From positions 1 through 64,000 of the forward strand of contig JANXAS010000016.1 in NCBI GenBank assembly GCA_025062195.1: a DNA stretch of 64,000 nucleotides. Reading direction: 5' to 3'. Each line of letters opens with the position of its first letter. Position 1 is the first letter of the stretch. Below are positions 55,573 to 61,757 of this stretch, piece after piece. The DNA comes from Armatimonadota bacterium (GTDB lineage Bacteria; Armatimonadota; Fervidibacteria; Fervidibacterales; Thermosaccharophagaceae). The notes beneath the pieces are model-generated. The model did no database searches. It saw nothing but the letters and a program-made list of their open reading frames with translations, and had not been told where the DNA came from. A program made the position numbers and the translations under genes.

Positions 55573-56136
55573 CTATTGCAATCCTCCAAAGCCAGGAGTA
55601 ACGATTCCGCCTCCAGGTCCCCAAGGCGAGATAACACCACCACCGCCACCTGTTGGCATCCTCTTCAACGGCTTGCCATACACATAAGACCGTATGAAGA
55701 CCTCGGCATTCTGGAACCCGAGAGCTTGTGAAAGTTCCCTCTCCCATTTCTTCATGTCAACACGCCACCATATAACTTCCCTTGCAACTGGTATGTTCAC
55801 CTTGATTTTGAAGTTAGTAGCCGCAAAGTTAAGCTCGGCTGGCACTAAGACACATTCCTCTCCCTTCGTTGGTGCACCGAGCGTATAAGTCATTGATTTA
55901 AGCACACGCAAAATTTGCTCCTGACTTTGGTCGGTTGATTGCTCCTTGGAGAAATTGCCACGCCACTCAGTTCCAACACACTCAGCGGCAGCTGCTCTAT
56001 CACCGTTGCGCAGGGCTTCAAGGAATTGAGCAACCCTCTTCTGGGGCGTCTCAACAGCTGCAAAGTAATAAATCACAGCTATTACAATACCAATTGCGAC
56101 AGCACCCCAAAAGTAACGCGCCAAAACAATTGTCAT
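55573..56136 (-). CDS. membrane-anchored hypothetical protein with Gly-rich tail
   Basis: The 187-residue protein has one N-terminal membrane helix (FWGAVAIGIVIAVIYYFA). A region like periplasmic NTF2-type domains follows (RVAQFLEALRNGDRAAAAECV; a WWRVDMKKWERELS segment). The end is low-complexity Gly/Pro (GGGGVISPWGPGGGIVTPGFGG). GGAGGTGATAAGAA is an ideal ribosome site. The gene is 51 bases downstream of the next member of the RNase E/G operon. Confidence 0.6.
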   Translation of the reverse strand: MTIVLARYFWGAVAIGIVIAVIYYFAAVETPQKRVAQFLEALRNGDRAAAAECVGTEWRGNFSKEQSTDQSQEQILRVLKSMTYTLGAPTKGEECVLVPAELNFAATNFKIKVNIPVAREVIWWRVDMKKWERELSQALGFQNAEVFIRSYVYGKPLKRMPTGGGGGVISPWGPGGGIVTPGFGGLQ

Positions 56137-56187: not shown

Positions 56188-56859
56188 TTACTGGCTTGCT
56201 TTTGTCACTTGAAGTTGCTCAACCTTTGCTTTTCTGCACCGCTCAACCTCAATTGCCACCACTGACATTGGAACACCGAGCAAGCTTGCCAACCTTTCAA
56301 TCACTCTGTCTATCTCTCTCTTGATCAAATCAATGTTTGCACCCTCTTTGCATTCCTCCTCTTCGGCGAACTCAGCGATTTGCGCGGCTGCTTCAAGAAT
56401 GAAACGAGCCCTCGTTGATTCATACTGGCGATGTGTCATTCGGTGAAATTGTTGCGAAAGCCTTTGCCAAAGCTCTCTCCAAGTCTTCTCGGCAGCCACA
56501 CCAGTAATAGCTGTCATTGCGCGCTGCTGTTCAAGCCGTTGTCTTACTACCATCATCTCCTTGTAGCGCTCATAGTCCTCCCAATTGCGCCCCTGAATAA
56601 TTTTGCTTTGGATATCCTCCCCCAGAAGTTGCTGCAGAATTTTATCAAGCAAGTTCTTGGTCGTTGGGGCAGTAACATGCGGCATTAATGGTGCATGTTC
56701 GTATGGGCATCCAAGGATGAACTCGTTGCCATCAAAGCCGAGTGGCACAAGCGCGTCAATGGCTTGCCATACAGCTGGTGTTGGAGATTGCAACTGCTGC
56801 ACTAACATGCGCTTCACTCTTTGCCAAATAGCAGTTGGGTCTGCCTGCCTGCTCATCAT
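56188..56859 (-). CDS. hypothetical protein with DnaA domain-I-like N-terminus
   Basis: The 223-residue protein begins PTAIWQRVKRMLVQQLQSPT, followed by VWQAIDALVPLGFDGNEFIL and a hydrophobic helix LLDKILQQLLG. This resembles the KH-like domain I of DnaA, with its leading Trp and the pattern of NEFIL ending strands. The rest is helical. A conserved-looking WEDYERYKEMMVVRQRLEQ and a charged C-terminus are seen. Its ATG overlaps the stop codon of the RNase E/G gene (ATGA). I cannot give a function. Confidence 0.55.
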   Translation of the reverse strand: MMSRQADPTAIWQRVKRMLVQQLQSPTPAVWQAIDALVPLGFDGNEFILGCPYEHAPLMPHVTAPTTKNLLDKILQQLLGEDIQSKIIQGRNWEDYERYKEMMVVRQRLEQQRAMTAITGVAAEKTWRELWQRLSQQFHRMTHRQYESTRARFILEAAAQIAEFAEEEECKEGANIDLIKREIDRVIERLASLLGVPMSVVAIEVERCRKAKVEQLQVTKASQ

Positions 56860-58622
56860 CTTGCTTCACCTCCTTCTGTTTTGAGTTTTAACGCGTCAAT
56901 CTCATTTTTCGCTACAGGTTCAACTGATGGCATCCAAGTTGCCTCTGCAAACCACCTGCCAACTCTTTCCAGCTTGAAAGAGATGCGAGGGGTCTCTACA
57001 CCAATGCCCTCCGGGAGGCGCACAAGCTTGTTTTTGAAGAGGGCAAACTTCGGAGCCTCTGAGGGATACAACTCATCGCCAGCACGAAGGTCAAATTGCT
57101 CCCCCTCTTTTGGCTCCGCCTCAAGATATGGTTTGAGCGCATCCTCACCAAACGCTATCTCAAACTGATCCCTACGCAGTGAGCGCGAGGCAAATAGCCA
57201 TATTTTCCTTTGGGCGATTGACTCAAGTCTCTCCAATTCCTCCTCACCGGCTTGCAAGAGTGGCGCAATCACCTTCGGGTGAGCGCAGACAACTGCATCC
57301 ACATCCGCTGGGCGAAGGCTTGATTCAAGGAGCAACTCCCTCCACAACTTTAGCGCTATAGTAAGCGCCGATGGCACTTTACCGTTGCCACAATGCTCGC
57401 ATGGCTCCATAAGAAGTTCCTCAAGGCTGAGACCATGCCTTTGTCTGGTCAACTCAACTACGCCAGTTGGGCTAAGCGTCATGATCCTCGTCTCAACCTC
57501 ATCCAGTGAAAGCTCACGCTGTAGACGCTCCTGCAGCCTAACCCAACTGTGAGAGCTCGGCATATCAACGAAGTCAACAATTATAAGACCGCTTATGTTC
57601 CGTATGCGAAGCTGCCTTGCCAGCTCCTCTGCAGCTTCCATGTTTACATGCAATGCTATCTCACGGGGGTCTCCAACTAACATATGCCCCGTGTTTACAT
57701 CCACGCTTGTAAGAGCTTCCGTCGTCTCAATTACAATGTAGCCACCGCTGGGCAACTTAACGACTTTTGAAAGGGCTGTTTCAACTTGCTTGGACACACC
57801 ATAAGCATCAAACAGTGGCGTAGGTGAGTCATACAGCTTTATGCGAGATGCAACATACGGCAAGTGTTGCATTGCTACAGCAAGCAGGCGTTCATAGTGT
57901 TCCGGCGAGTCTATGATGATTTCGCTCACTTTGTGCGCCATTGAGAAAAGAGAGCGCTCAATCAGGCTCGGGCTGCGATAGAGCAGCGATGGCGCCGAAG
58001 TTGACTTATACCTGAAAACAATGTCATGCCATATCTTCACAAGCTCCCTTATGTCGTTCGCTATCTCGTTTTCATTCCTTTCGGCAGCCTCCGGAAAAAC
58101 ATGCACACCGCAATCAAGAGGGCGATACTTCTCAACTATCCTAAGCAGCCTTTCTCTCACCCTCACATTCGTTATTGTGTGGGACACGGAGGAGTGATCG
58201 GCGCCTTGAGCTATTAGTCCGGTGAATCTGCCGCGAAGCGATATGCGCGTAGTTAGCCTGGGGCATTTTTGCCCCCTCGGCTCGTGCACAACTTGAACAA
58301 GTATCGACTGCCCCGGTCTTAAGGAGTCTATCTGAATTCGTGCAAGGCGGCTTACAGTTTCAACACCGATTGAATTCGGGGCTAAATCGCCCGCCTGAAG
58401 AAAACCATACACTCCTTCCTCAAGCTTCACGAAAGCCGCATCTATCGCCGGAGCAAGCCTTTCAACAACACCTTTATAAATGTTGCCCGTGAGTTTGTGA
58501 GCACCCTCAACTTCAAGCTTCTCAAGTCTTCCCGAAATGGTCAGAGCCACCCAAACCTGTCCCATGCATACGCTTATTAGCAACAGCCCTTCGCCTACAC
58601 GCATGCCATCATCATCAGCCAT
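56856..58622 (-). CDS. rng: ribonuclease E/G
   Basis: The 588-residue endoribonuclease cuts single-stranded RNA. The S1 RNA-binding part is at about 40-130 (NIYKGVVERLAPAIDAAFVKL, GYGFLQAGDL-like). Catalytic Mg ligands are Asp308 in LTSVDVNTG and Asp350 in LIIVDFVDM. The zinc-link cysteines are Cys408 and Cys411 (PCEHCGNG). A C-terminal region of about 170 residues follows, and it may bind partners. CAATTGGGGGTGACAG gives the start. Confidence 0.92.
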   Translation of the reverse strand: MADDDGMRVGEGLLLISVCMGQVWVALTISGRLEKLEVEGAHKLTGNIYKGVVERLAPAIDAAFVKLEEGVYGFLQAGDLAPNSIGVETVSRLARIQIDSLRPGQSILVQVVHEPRGQKCPRLTTRISLRGRFTGLIAQGADHSSVSHTITNVRVRERLLRIVEKYRPLDCGVHVFPEAAERNENEIANDIRELVKIWHDIVFRYKSTSAPSLLYRSPSLIERSLFSMAHKVSEIIIDSPEHYERLLAVAMQHLPYVASRIKLYDSPTPLFDAYGVSKQVETALSKVVKLPSGGYIVIETTEALTSVDVNTGHMLVGDPREIALHVNMEAAEELARQLRIRNISGLIIVDFVDMPSSHSWVRLQERLQRELSLDEVETRIMTLSPTGVVELTRQRHGLSLEELLMEPCEHCGNGKVPSALTIALKLWRELLLESSLRPADVDAVVCAHPKVIAPLLQAGEEELERLESIAQRKIWLFASRSLRRDQFEIAFGEDALKPYLEAEPKEGEQFDLRAGDELYPSEAPKFALFKNKLVRLPEGIGVETPRISFKLERVGRWFAEATWMPSVEPVAKNEIDALKLKTEGGEAR

Positions 58623-58943: not shown

Positions 58944-61163
58944 CTATTGCCTTTGCGAGGACCTCAAAGCGGCTTCCAATTTCCTGATGGGCATCGGTGT
59001 CATTTGGAAGCGCATATCACATTGCAGGCACCTTGCGGCTTCGGCTATTGCTTCCTCAGGTGTAAAGCCGAGTTCAACCTCATCAAAGTTTTCTCTTCTC
59101 ACATCCGGATGAAGCATTGCTGGCTTAACACGATTGAGATACGCAAACCCGTCAACCCTTCCCATCCACAAGCTGCGCTTTTCTATGAAGCCCTCATCCG
59201 TGAGCCTCTCATCAATGTCGCCGTCGCCACCCAAGAACTTGTCAATTGATGATGCAGCTAACCTGCCATGAGCTATTGCCTCAATCACCGATGAAGGTCC
59301 AAGCACTATGTCACCGCCTGCAAAGACTCCTTCTATGCTTGTTGCGAGCGTCTTATCATCAACGGCGATCAAGCCGCGCCTTGTTAGCTCAACTCCAAAC
59401 CCTTTTGGTATCTCGGGGGCTTGCCCAATCGCAACAATGAGCGAATCAAAACGGAGCATGAATTCCGAGCCTTCAATCGGTATCGGTCTTGGGCGACCAG
59501 TCTCATCCGGTGCGCCAAGCCTCATCCTGATAAGTTCAATATTAACCGAGTCATCATTTCCAATTATGCGCTTTGGAGCAACAAGTGGTTCAATTCTAAC
59601 ACCCTCTTCAAGTGCAGCTTCAATTTCCTCATCAAGCGCTGGCATCTCATCCCTTGTTCGTCGGTAAAGTATGGTCACATTATCAGCGCCAAGCCTTAGC
59701 GCCACTCTTGAAGCATCAATTGCTACATTGCCTCCACCTATTACTCCAACGCTCTCGCCGAGGGAGACCTGCTCGCCCATGTTCACTCGCTTCAGCAATG
59801 TCAACCCATCAATCACTCTGTAATGCTCCTCGCCATCAATGCCGAGCTTGATTGCCTTCTGAGTCCCAATTGCTATAAAGATGGAGCTGAAGCCTTGAGC
59901 GAACAGCCACTCAATGCTTTCCACTTTCGCTCGCGTGCGCAATTCAATGCCCAATGAGAGTATCTCATTCACCTCTTCGTCCAACACCTCTTTTGGCAGC
60001 CTGTAGTGTGGTATGCCGTAGCGCATCATTCCGCCTGGTTCGTCATTCTCGTCAAATACGGTGATGCTGTATCCGAGCTTTCTCAGGTAGTATGCGGCAG
60101 TCAATCCGGCAGGTCCGGCACCGATAACGGCGATGCGCTTCTCCTTTTTCGGCTTGAATGTTGAGCGCTCCTTCCATGTTGGCTTTGCATAGTCGGCAAC
60201 AAAACGCTTTAGAAGCCTTATAGCAATAGGCTTATTAAGTTCTTGTCTTCGGCACGCATCCTCACATGGATGCATGCATACTCTTCCAAGCACCTTAGGA
60301 AACGGCACCCTTTCACGATTGACAGAGAGAGCCTCTTCAAACTTGCCCTCGGCTATCAGACGGATATATCTTGGCACATCAATGCCAGCTGGACACGCAT
60401 ACTTGCATGGCACAAGGACTTGTTCCCTTGGCTTATCATCAAAGCTGACTTTGTCAAGCAACGCCCCCGACGGGCACACCTCAACACAAGTGCAGCAAAA
60501 CTTGCACCCCGAATCCTCAAGGCTCATACCGGGTGGTGGTCCGGTGAATGAATTGCGACCACGAAATATAAACCCGATTGCACCTATCCCCCTTGCCTCT
60601 TGGCACGCCTTTATGCAGCGCTCGCAAAGTATGCATTTGTTCCGGTCAATCAAGATCAGCGGCTCATCTTCGGCTGGCTTAAAACCACGGTGAGCATACT
60701 TTGGTTTTGGTAAGCCCTCAGGTAGACCAACATCATCAACGATGAAGCGGAGCTCGCACGCCTCCCATTTGTAGCAACAGCGCTGCTCAACTGGGATGTC
60801 GTATTCACACGACCTTAAATTGCATGTGTTCCTTTTGTCGCACAGCAGGCATTCAGTGCATGGATAATCGCTGAGCAAAAGCCAAAGGACATGCTGCCTC
60901 ATGCTCTTCACAGCCGGTGTGCTTGTGTGCACAACCATGCCATCCGAGCAAGGCAGCGTGCATGATGTGTGGAAACCCTTCATCCCCTCAACTTCAACGG
61001 TGCACATTCTGCATGCGCCAGTCGGGGAGAGCTTTGGATGGTAGCAAAGTGTCGGGATATGCAATCCAGCTTGCCTTGCAGCGAGCAAGACCGTCGTTCC
61101 TTCTGGGACTTTGATTTGCACGCCATCAATTGTCACATTAAGCCACTTGCTCACCTTAACCAT
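58944..61163 (-). CDS. iron-sulfur FAD oxidoreductase (NuoG-type head plus GltD-like domain)
   Basis: The 739-residue protein has a NuoG-type [2Fe-2S] N-terminus with Cys40, 51, 54 and 68 (LCYHPKLSPTGACRMC). Further cysteine-rich [4Fe-4S] parts follow (CTECLLCDKRNTC, CILCERCIKACQ, CKFCCTCVEVCPSGAL). A GltD/NfnB-like NAD(P)H-FAD part then has IAVIGAGPAGLTAAYYL, MMRYGIPHYRLPKEVL and VGVIGGGNVAID, and a C-terminal tail ends in AARCLQC. The first Met three codons upstream is part of a GAGGTG site. It pairs with NuoE, 27 bases upstream. Confidence 0.87.
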   Translation of the reverse strand: MVKVSKWLNVTIDGVQIKVPEGTTVLLAARQAGLHIPTLCYHPKLSPTGACRMCTVEVEGMKGFHTSCTLPCSDGMVVHTSTPAVKSMRQHVLWLLLSDYPCTECLLCDKRNTCNLRSCEYDIPVEQRCCYKWEACELRFIVDDVGLPEGLPKPKYAHRGFKPAEDEPLILIDRNKCILCERCIKACQEARGIGAIGFIFRGRNSFTGPPPGMSLEDSGCKFCCTCVEVCPSGALLDKVSFDDKPREQVLVPCKYACPAGIDVPRYIRLIAEGKFEEALSVNRERVPFPKVLGRVCMHPCEDACRRQELNKPIAIRLLKRFVADYAKPTWKERSTFKPKKEKRIAVIGAGPAGLTAAYYLRKLGYSITVFDENDEPGGMMRYGIPHYRLPKEVLDEEVNEILSLGIELRTRAKVESIEWLFAQGFSSIFIAIGTQKAIKLGIDGEEHYRVIDGLTLLKRVNMGEQVSLGESVGVIGGGNVAIDASRVALRLGADNVTILYRRTRDEMPALDEEIEAALEEGVRIEPLVAPKRIIGNDDSVNIELIRMRLGAPDETGRPRPIPIEGSEFMLRFDSLIVAIGQAPEIPKGFGVELTRRGLIAVDDKTLATSIEGVFAGGDIVLGPSSVIEAIAHGRLAASSIDKFLGGDGDIDERLTDEGFIEKRSLWMGRVDGFAYLNRVKPAMLHPDVRRENFDEVELGFTPEEAIAEAARCLQCDMRFQMTPMPIRKLEAALRSSQRQ

Positions 61164-61190
61164 TGCTAACACACCTCAATTTATCCTGCG

Positions 61191-61697
61191 CTATTTAGCA
61201 TCCTTTGTCACATGTTCGCCTTTTCCAACATCATTAGCTGCGTGTTCTCTGAGCAGCTTCTCAACCTTTGAAATGGTTTGGCGACCATGAACTTGATCGT
61301 CAATTGCCACAACTGGTGCCATGCCACAACACCCTAAGCATGCTACCCTCTCAAGCGTGAATGTGCCATCCTTTGTTGTCTCACCAGCGCTCACACCGAG
61401 CACCTGCGAGACATAATTGAAGATGTCTTGCCCGCCCATCACATGGCATGCTGTTCCAAGACAGACTTTTATCACATGCTTTCCCCTCGGCGTTAGCCTG
61501 AACTGCGCATAGAATGTGAGCACCTCGTAAACTTCAACTTCAAAAATATCCAACTCCCTTGCCACCGCTTTGATTGCTTCCTTAGGGACATATCCAAGTT
61601 CGGATTGTATCTCTTGGAGCAACGGTATCAGACTGCTCCTTTCCCTGCCGTGCCTTTCAATCAGCGCATCAATGTCAAAGGCTTCTTTGACCATCAT
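61191..61697 (-). CDS. NuoE-like [2Fe-2S] protein
   Basis: The 168-residue protein is the NuoE/HydA-type thioredoxin-like [2Fe-2S] subunit. Its ligands are Cys79 and Cys84 in CLGTAC, and Cys120 and Cys124 in CLGCCG. The N-terminal helical lead-in is LIPLLQEIQSELGYVPKEAI. NuoE works with an FMN-binding NuoF, which is absent here. The frame opens 20 codons earlier, but GGAGTGGGT lies next to this ATG. The gene is upstream of the NuoG/GltD-like gene. Confidence 0.9.
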   Translation of the reverse strand: MMVKEAFDIDALIERHGRERSSLIPLLQEIQSELGYVPKEAIKAVARELDIFEVEVYEVLTFYAQFRLTPRGKHVIKVCLGTACHVMGGQDIFNYVSQVLGVSAGETTKDGTFTLERVACLGCCGMAPVVAIDDQVHGRQTISKVEKLLREHAANDVGKGEHVTKDAK

Positions 61698-61757
61698 ACC
61701 CACTCCATTCTTTTTGGTGACACTGCCAACCATGATGGCGCAAAAGGACCCTGACAT

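What the first reader, a model, noticed from the sequence alone, without database searches (positions are those of the whole stretch)
56188..58622. DnaA-domain-I-like protein coupled to RNase E/G
The hypothetical protein overlaps the RNase E/G gene by ATGA and begins with a pattern like DnaA domain I (IWQRVKRML..VWQAIDAL..NEFIL). This could link RNA decay to a DnaA-partner binding surface, and it is not a pairing I know.
Basis: inference. Interest (0 to 1): 0.5.

Follow-up and report, generated by a model that had tools for sequence, protein, structure and literature searches.

The report
Armatimonad DnaA-domain-I-like adaptor protein
The unnamed gene overlapping an RNA-cutting enzyme gene makes a small protein whose front half really is built like the docking domain of the replication starter DnaA; it is a nearly universal gene of its bacterial phylum, in one branch it is fused to a chaperone-recruiting J domain, and its pairing with the RNA enzyme is a local arrangement rather than a fixed partnership.

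Summary
The ORF, its coordinates, the ATGA overlap with RNase E/G and the quoted motif are real. The DnaA-domain-I idea, made by eye, holds. The family profile matches DnaA domain I and the DnaX/tau C-terminal domain (hhalign 98.3% and 97.8%; 60 shuffles each far lower). The AlphaFold model's top match is DnaA domain I (Z 11.8, 2.3 A, 82 of 82 residues). The family is near-universal in its phylum, Armatimonadota (270 of 291 genomes); Pfam and NCBIfam scans of 56 members found no model of its own. In three families (11 of 11 genomes) it carries an N-terminal J domain; the five fused rows in the tree form one group. RNase E/G lies within 1 kb in 5 of 5 genomes of the window's order, but in 6 of 53 sampled genomes with both genes; three f15 genomes keep the gene and show no RNase E/G. 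An RNA-decay link is not supported. Best reading: a phylum-core docking adaptor built on a replication-protein module, which one lineage coupled to Hsp70. The partner is unknown; a replication role is inferred.

The parts
56188..56859 (-). Gene of the DnaA-domain-I-like protein (223 aa, stop included)
   Evidence: family profile matches 270 of 291 phylum genomes
56590..56850 (-). N-terminal DnaA-domain-I/tau-C-terminal-like domain, residues 4-90 (helix-helix-strand-strand-helix-helix-strand)
   Evidence: AlphaFold model, mean pLDDT 93.1; 4tps_B Z 11.8, 82 of 82 residues; hhalign
56824..56826 (-). Trp12, invariant in 56 of 56 family rows; aligns with the helix-1 Trp of DnaA domain I
56440..56583 (-). 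Long connecting helix, residues 93-140
   Evidence: Predicted structure
56194..56421 (-). C-terminal helical domain, residues 147-222, with conserved Arg/Lys 150, 181, 185, 189
   Evidence: weak structural likeness to the DnaG helical subdomain
56867..56873 (-). Shine-Dalgarno GGAGGTG inside the RNase E/G 3' end
   Evidence: Sequence
56856..58622 (-). RNase E/G (588 aa), overlaps the gene by 4 bases (56856-56859)
   Evidence: PF10150 1.7e-73, TIGR00757 2.7e-105

Best explanation
A two-domain, phylum-core adaptor protein of Armatimonadota. Shown by computation: an N-terminal domain homologous to DnaA domain I and to the DnaX/tau C-terminal domain, a long helix, a helical C-terminal domain with conserved basic residues (both predicted), near-universal presence in the phylum, and in three families a direct N-terminal fusion to a J domain with HPD. 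Inferred: the N-terminal domain docks, as it does in DnaA and tau, onto a partner protein (most likely DnaA itself through the helix-1 face, or a replisome protein), and the C-terminal domain makes the second contact. In the J-fused clade the docking part delivers DnaK (Hsp70) to that partner; elsewhere the same adaptor works without its own J domain. Co-transcription with RNase E/G in the window is an operon arrangement kept or regained in two lineages, not the basis of the function.
For: Homology: hhalign against DnaA domain I 98.3% and against DnaX C-terminus 97.8%, shuffled and reversed controls far below. In whole genomes the family HMM also hits places that searches identify as DnaA N-termini (G010, E 1.1e-8; also G013, G026, G039, G049, G059) and DnaX C-termini (G013, G049, G059). 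Its N-terminal part hits 22 of 29 DnaA and 7 of 10 DnaX domains at E<1e-3, and 0 of 4 DciA and 0 of 24 DnaG. Fold. Core gene: 270 of 291 genomes, 188 of 194 of good quality. J fusion: PF00226 at 1.7e-20 to 9.6e-23 in 5 of 5 scanned; 11 of 11 genomes of f10, f20, f28; the 5 fused rows in the tree form one group, 100/99. Trp12 invariant; E. coli DnaA Trp6 is critical for domain I dimerisation (PMC5448010, passages read). No need for RNase E/G: f15.
Against: No partner or phenotype is known. The Asn47/Phe49 face of DnaA is not conserved, and the helix-1 Trp also appears in an Armatimonad DnaX C-terminal domain, so it may be structural. Ribosomal proteins, RbfA and Era, which bind RNA, appear lower in the fold lists. 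Foldseek itself gives no match at E<=0.001. Neighbours are rarely replication genes; RecO next door in 3 loci is the only such hint seen. DciA, a helicase loader, is present separately (56 of 61), so that role is not vacant. The J domain was seen in only three families. Six of 194 good-quality genomes have no match, so the gene is not strictly universal.
Confidence: 0.4

Rival explanations
1. RNA-metabolism factor: the KH-like N-terminal domain and basic C-terminal domain bind RNA, and the protein is a partner or regulator of RNase E/G, expressed from the same operon.
For: Overlapping genes in the window; RNase E/G next door in 5 of 5 genomes of the order; RNase E/G is the most frequent family among the upstream neighbours scanned (6 of 49 proteins, 5 of them from this one order); recurrence in Fimbriimonadaceae; ribosomal proteins, RbfA and Era among lower fold matches; conserved Arg/Lys in the C-terminal domain.
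Against: All three f15 genomes (97% complete) keep the gene and show no RNase E/G match. Linkage within 1 kb in 6 of 53 sampled genomes with both genes. Sequence profiles point to DnaA and DnaX; DnaA domain I stands above the best ribosomal chain in the fold list (Z 11.8 against 8.5).
Confidence: 0.2
2. General Hsp70 co-chaperone: the protein is a client-binding module for DnaK (nascent chains, aggregates), and the DnaA-I-like domain is merely a reused fold.
For: J domains fused in frame in 11 of 11 genomes of three families, with the HPD motif in the 10 where that part is held.
Against: The motif search found no fusion in the other 51 sampled loci or the 53 named loci. A separate J-domain gene was seen near the gene only in L042. 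The fused rows form one group, so the ancestral role need not involve DnaK.
Confidence: 0.2
3. A free-standing tau-domain-like replisome subunit that contacts DNA polymerase III alpha.
For: One DnaX gamma/tau model is matched by 15 of 56 members at E<=1 (best 8.1e-10). Of ten members scanned singly, six hit DnaX models, mostly at the C-terminal end. PF20964 hits 6 of 56 at E<=1, best 6e-6.
Against: 47 of 61 genomes have a PF20964 match at E<=1 (30 over the cut-off), mainly on DnaX-length frames, so DnaX often keeps its own C-terminal domain; but four of five f13 genomes show none, and the model also misses E. coli and B. subtilis among its controls, so this says little. The window protein itself is nearer to DnaA domain I (E 5.2e-5 against 4.5 for DnaX).
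Confidence: 0.15

Closest known systems
DnaA domain I (PF11638; 4tps, 2wp0, 2e0g)
   Same: Fold over the whole domain, profile similarity over 80 columns, helix-1 Trp
   Different: No AAA+ or DNA-binding domain follows; followed by a long helix and a helical domain; partner-face residues not conserved; PF11638 cut-off not reached (best 17.5 of 24.6 bits)
DnaX/tau C-terminal domain (PF20964; 5fkv, 2aya)
   Same: Profile 97.8%; single-sequence hits down to 8.1e-10 against whole-DnaX models
   Different: Free-standing and N-terminal; no AAA+ clamp-loader part
DciA (PF05258)
   Same: Related fold in the structure lists (7ykm, 8a3v)
   Different: No profile similarity (0.2%); DciA encoded elsewhere in 56 of 61 genomes
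J-domain proteins (PF00226)
   Same: N-terminal J domain in f10, f20, f28
   Different: No match in the window protein; no zinc-finger or C-terminal client domains of DnaJ type reported by Pfam in the five fusions scanned
DnaG RNA polymerase domain, helical part (5guj, 4e2k, 5vaz)
   Same: C-terminal domain superposes (5guj Z 8.3, 1.9 A, 68 residues; three DnaG entries for the second model)
   Different: Profile only 16-23%; helical bundles match by chance

Membership tests
DnaA domain I superfamily | Fold of solved DnaA domain I | tested here: met
   Z 11.8, rmsd 2.3, 82 of 82 residues; second model Z 11.4, 81 of 82
DnaA domain I superfamily | Sequence-profile similarity | tested here: met
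   PDB profile search ranks DnaA first and second (E 0.0098 and 0.28)
DnaA domain I superfamily | PF11638 curated cut-off by single sequence | tested here: not met
   Best member 17.5 bits against 24.6; window protein no hit
DnaA domain I superfamily | Helix-1 Trp (E. coli Trp6 dimerisation residue) | tested here: met
   Trp12 in 56 of 56 rows, aligned
DnaA domain I superfamily | Partner-face residues (B. subtilis Asn47, Phe49) | tested here: not met
   Family consensus has other, unconserved residues there
DnaA (initiator) | AAA+ and DNA-binding domains | tested here: not met
   223 aa, no such Pfam match
DnaX (gamma/tau) | AAA+ clamp-loader part | tested here: not met
   No match for the window protein; in relatives only positions past 437 of the DnaX models match
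DciA | PF05258 domain | tested here: not met
   hhalign 0.2% (4 DciA rows); window protein no hit; separate DciA present
J-domain protein | PF00226 with HPD | tested here: not met
   Not in the window protein; met in f10, f20, f28
DnaG helical part | Profile and fold similarity of the C-terminal domain | tested here: inconclusive
RNase E/G partner | Conserved linkage and co-occurrence | tested here: not met
   Within 1 kb in 6 of 53 genomes with both; f15 shows no RNase E/G
DnaA/DnaK partner | Physical interaction | not testable with these tools
   Needs experiment

The most novel reading that the evidence does not exclude
Armatimonadota carry a dedicated replication-control adaptor assembled from initiator-type and primase-type modules (DnaA-domain-I-like head, DnaG-helical-part-like tail) that heterodimerises with DnaA or the replisome; in one lineage it became a J protein that sends Hsp70 specifically to the replication machinery, a way of controlling initiation or fork restart that I do not know from elsewhere.
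Probability: 0.15. Interest if true: 0.8.

Novelty: new variant of a known kind. Interest (0 to 1): 0.52.

Why it matters
A near-universal gene of a whole phylum has no model of its own in the Pfam and NCBIfam copies scanned. It extends the DnaA-domain-I/tau superfamily with a free-standing member and gives a natural J-domain fusion, which makes a link between Hsp70 and a replication-type docking domain testable. It also shows that the RNase E/G pairing is probably an operon effect that should not be over-read.

Tried and rejected
RNA-decay coupling: weakened by patchy linkage and by the absence of RNase E/G matches in f15. Replacement of the helicase loader DciA: rejected, DciA is present in 56 of 61. 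Replacement of a lost tau C-terminus: not supported, but weakly tested, because PF20964 misses many true DnaX (nothing in four of five f13 genomes, nor in the E. coli and B. subtilis controls). Long N-terminal extensions in other members (such as L041, L073, L079, L080, L081, L082): no similarity to one another by blastp and an ATG just before the domain, so read as open frames, not domains. C-terminal domain as a DnaG module: left open. The 109-row profile scores 21.5-21.6 against a maximum of 19.8 in 26 background clusters, the 56-row profile 23.8 against 18.8 in 60 shuffles; but PF10410 hits no family member, and the tool warns about helical bundles. PHROGs: only scattered weak hits, best 0.0018. 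Fold-list absences show nothing.

Rows dropped: for I used 29 of 30 DnaA loci (L108, a short frame, left out) and 24 of 30 DnaG loci (L188, L203, L205, L207, L208, L210 left out). The DnaA, DnaX, DciA and DnaG loci are only the best-scoring ones given. Gene neighbours come from a simple longest-frame caller of my own.

Literature: no paper found that holds 'DnaA domain I' with 'Armatimonad', 'DnaA domain I' with 'tau subunit' and 'domain V', or 'J-domain' with 'DnaA N-terminal domain'. Searches gave listings only. Of the papers, 12 passages of PMC5448010 and one passage of PMC5109545 were read. Presence outside the phylum was not properly tested: the genome-wide scans use short patterns (one search found none; one search found 53 loci, titled as Armatimonad, Chthonomonas or Fimbriimonad material or as plain 'bacterium', and one record titled Methanoregulaceae).

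Full report
What is there. The window carries, on the minus strand, RNase E/G (56856-58622, 588 aa) followed by a 223-aa ORF (56188-56859) that overlaps it by ATGA and has a GGAGGTG site inside the RNase gene, 7 nt before its ATG. The RNase is typical (PF10150 1.7e-73; TIGR00757 above its cut-off). The 223-aa protein alone has no Pfam match above the noise (best E 0.087) and no NCBIfam match at E<=1.

Distribution. A BLAST search with the protein matched 56 of 61 relatives, one match each, except that one genome gave two pieces of one frame. A profile of those 56 rows (A1) found 270 of 291 genomes of the phylum, 188 of 194 of good quality. Some genomes give further, weaker matches. In 20 genomes searched again with a loose limit, many of these fall on places that name as DnaA or DnaX; for genomes outside those two calls, and for a few very weak matches, I did not identify them. 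I saw no second full-length family member. Six good-quality genomes have no match; five are printed (G018, G029, G056, G169, G170), the last two being 1.5 Mb genomes of one genus.

The N-terminal domain. Profile-profile comparison with DnaA domains I from the same genomes (29 rows) gave 98.3%, score 73.4, over 80 columns; the 60 column-shuffled controls reached at most 18.3 and the reversed profile 16.6. Against DnaX C-termini (10 rows) it gave 97.8%, score 68.0 (shuffle maximum 13.9), and against DciA (4 rows) 0.2%. As a positive control, DnaA domain I against the DnaX C-terminus gave 98.2%. The family HMM, run on whole genomes, picks out DnaA N-termini (best 1.1e-8, G010) and DnaX C-termini (best identified 1.6e-4, G013). 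An HMM of Armatimonad DnaA domains I hits 28 of 56 family members at E<1e-3 (scaled to 3000 proteins), the window protein among them (5.2e-5); the DnaX HMM hits 20 of 56 but not the window protein (4.5). PF11638 reaches only 17.5 and 17.2 bits in two members, under its cut-off of 24.6. One DnaX gamma/tau model of NCBIfam hits 15 of 56 members at E<=1, best 8.1e-10. Of ten members that I picked and scanned singly, six hit DnaX models, at or near the C-terminal end (for one long model, positions 513-621 of 841). In the PDB by sequence profile, DnaA domain I ranks first (E 0.0098) and DnaA again second (0.28).

Structure. AlphaFold2 with 54 sequences gave mean pLDDT 93.1, pTM 0.61 for the window protein and 91.0, 0.53 for a Fimbriimonad relative; the moderate pTM leaves the placing of the two halves open. 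Foldseek ranks B. subtilis DnaA domain I first for both (E 4.4e-3 and 1.2e-2; nothing reaches 0.001), with tau and DciA below. VIA-align gives 4tps_B Z 11.8, rmsd 2.3 over 82 of 82 residues, and H. pylori DnaA domain I Z 9.1; ribosomal chains follow at 8.5 and lower. Trp12 is invariant (56 of 56) and aligns with the helix-1 Trp of DnaA, which in E. coli (Trp6) is critical for dimerisation (PMC5448010, passages read). That Trp also occurs in an Armatimonad DnaX C-terminal domain (sequence printed), so it may be a core residue. The Asn47/Phe49 region of DnaA is not conserved.

The C-terminal domain. A 48-residue helix leads to a helical domain with Arg or Lys at 150 (50 of 56), 181 (53), 185 (56) and 189 (53). 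Its best natural structural match is the DnaG RNA polymerase domain helical part: 5guj Z 8.3, 1.9 A, 68 residues, below a designed protein at 9.4; for the second model 5guj 8.2, 4e2k 7.4 and 5vaz 7.0, with designed proteins and XPR1 at similar Z. Profiles give 16-23%, slightly above controls, and PF10410 finds no family member. This is a lead, not a result.

The J-domain fusion. In families f20 (8 genomes), f10 (2) and f28 (1) the same reading frame begins with a J domain, joined by a short linker to the DnaA-like domain. PF00226 scores 1.7e-20 to 9.6e-23 in 5 of 5 proteins scanned. A motif search that requires HPD shows it in 10 of these 11 genomes. In the eleventh (G224) tblastn with a fused protein aligns from residue 38, at the edge of the sequence held, so the J part is there but cut. 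In the family tree the five fused rows included form one group at 100/99, which fits one origin but does not prove it. The motif search found no fusion in the other 51 of the 56 sampled loci nor in the 53 named loci; the rest of the 270 genomes were not looked at for it. A fusion is evidence that the adaptor can work with DnaK; that it does so in unfused lineages is inference.

The RNase E/G pairing. It is directly upstream in 5 of 5 genomes of the window's order and about 0.64 kb upstream in G051. Among 53 named loci (flanks up to 8 kb, some cut by contig ends, and a few the same genomes as unnamed ones, such as L115 and G051) 16 hold RNase E/G, 14 of them upstream on the same strand, 54 bp to 5.5 kb away, and 4 within about 105 bp. 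In the tree the linked rows lie in two separate places, the window's order and f13; the label test alone cannot count origins because most rows carry no label. Of the 53 sampled genomes with both genes 6 have them within 1 kb. RNase E/G is the commonest family among the upstream neighbours scanned (6 of 49 proteins, from 30 of 56 loci), but five of these six come from one order; RecO is next door in 3 loci, and xylose-isomerase-like proteins occur on both sides. All three f15 genomes, each 97% complete, have the gene but no RNase E/G match. The pairing is therefore real and recurrent but not needed.

Interpretation. I favour a docking adaptor whose DnaA/tau-type head binds a protein, probably in replication, and which one lineage joined to Hsp70. 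Shown by computation: homology, predicted fold, distribution, fusion, linkage. Inferred: the partner, the role in replication and the action with DnaK. Confidence in the mechanism is 0.4; my confidence that the N-terminal domain belongs to the DnaA-I/tau superfamily is about 0.95.

Noticed in passing
G017, G030, G043 (f15): Three related genomes at 97% completeness have no RNase E/G match (PF10150), an apparent lineage loss.
   Followed up: partly
L054, L057, L063 (upstream of the gene): RecO gene directly upstream of the family gene on the same strand.
   Followed up: no
L042 2385-3530: A separate gene with a DnaJ-like motif lies close to the unfused family gene in one f7 genome.
   Followed up: no
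G169, G170: Two 1.5 Mb genomes of one genus in f13, 97% complete, show no match to the family: small genomes that may have lost it.
   Followed up: no
window 55573-56136 (-): 187-aa ORF, by eye with an N-terminal membrane helix, follows the gene on the same strand; its relation to the gene was not examined.
   Followed up: no
window 58944-61757 (-): By eye, a 742-aa iron-sulphur plus GltD-type oxidoreductase and a NuoE-like protein upstream of RNase E/G; not searched.
   Followed up: no
L061, L065, L068, L035, L037, L038, L031, L032: A xylose-isomerase-like TIM-barrel gene sits near the family gene on the same strand in three families.
   Followed up: partly
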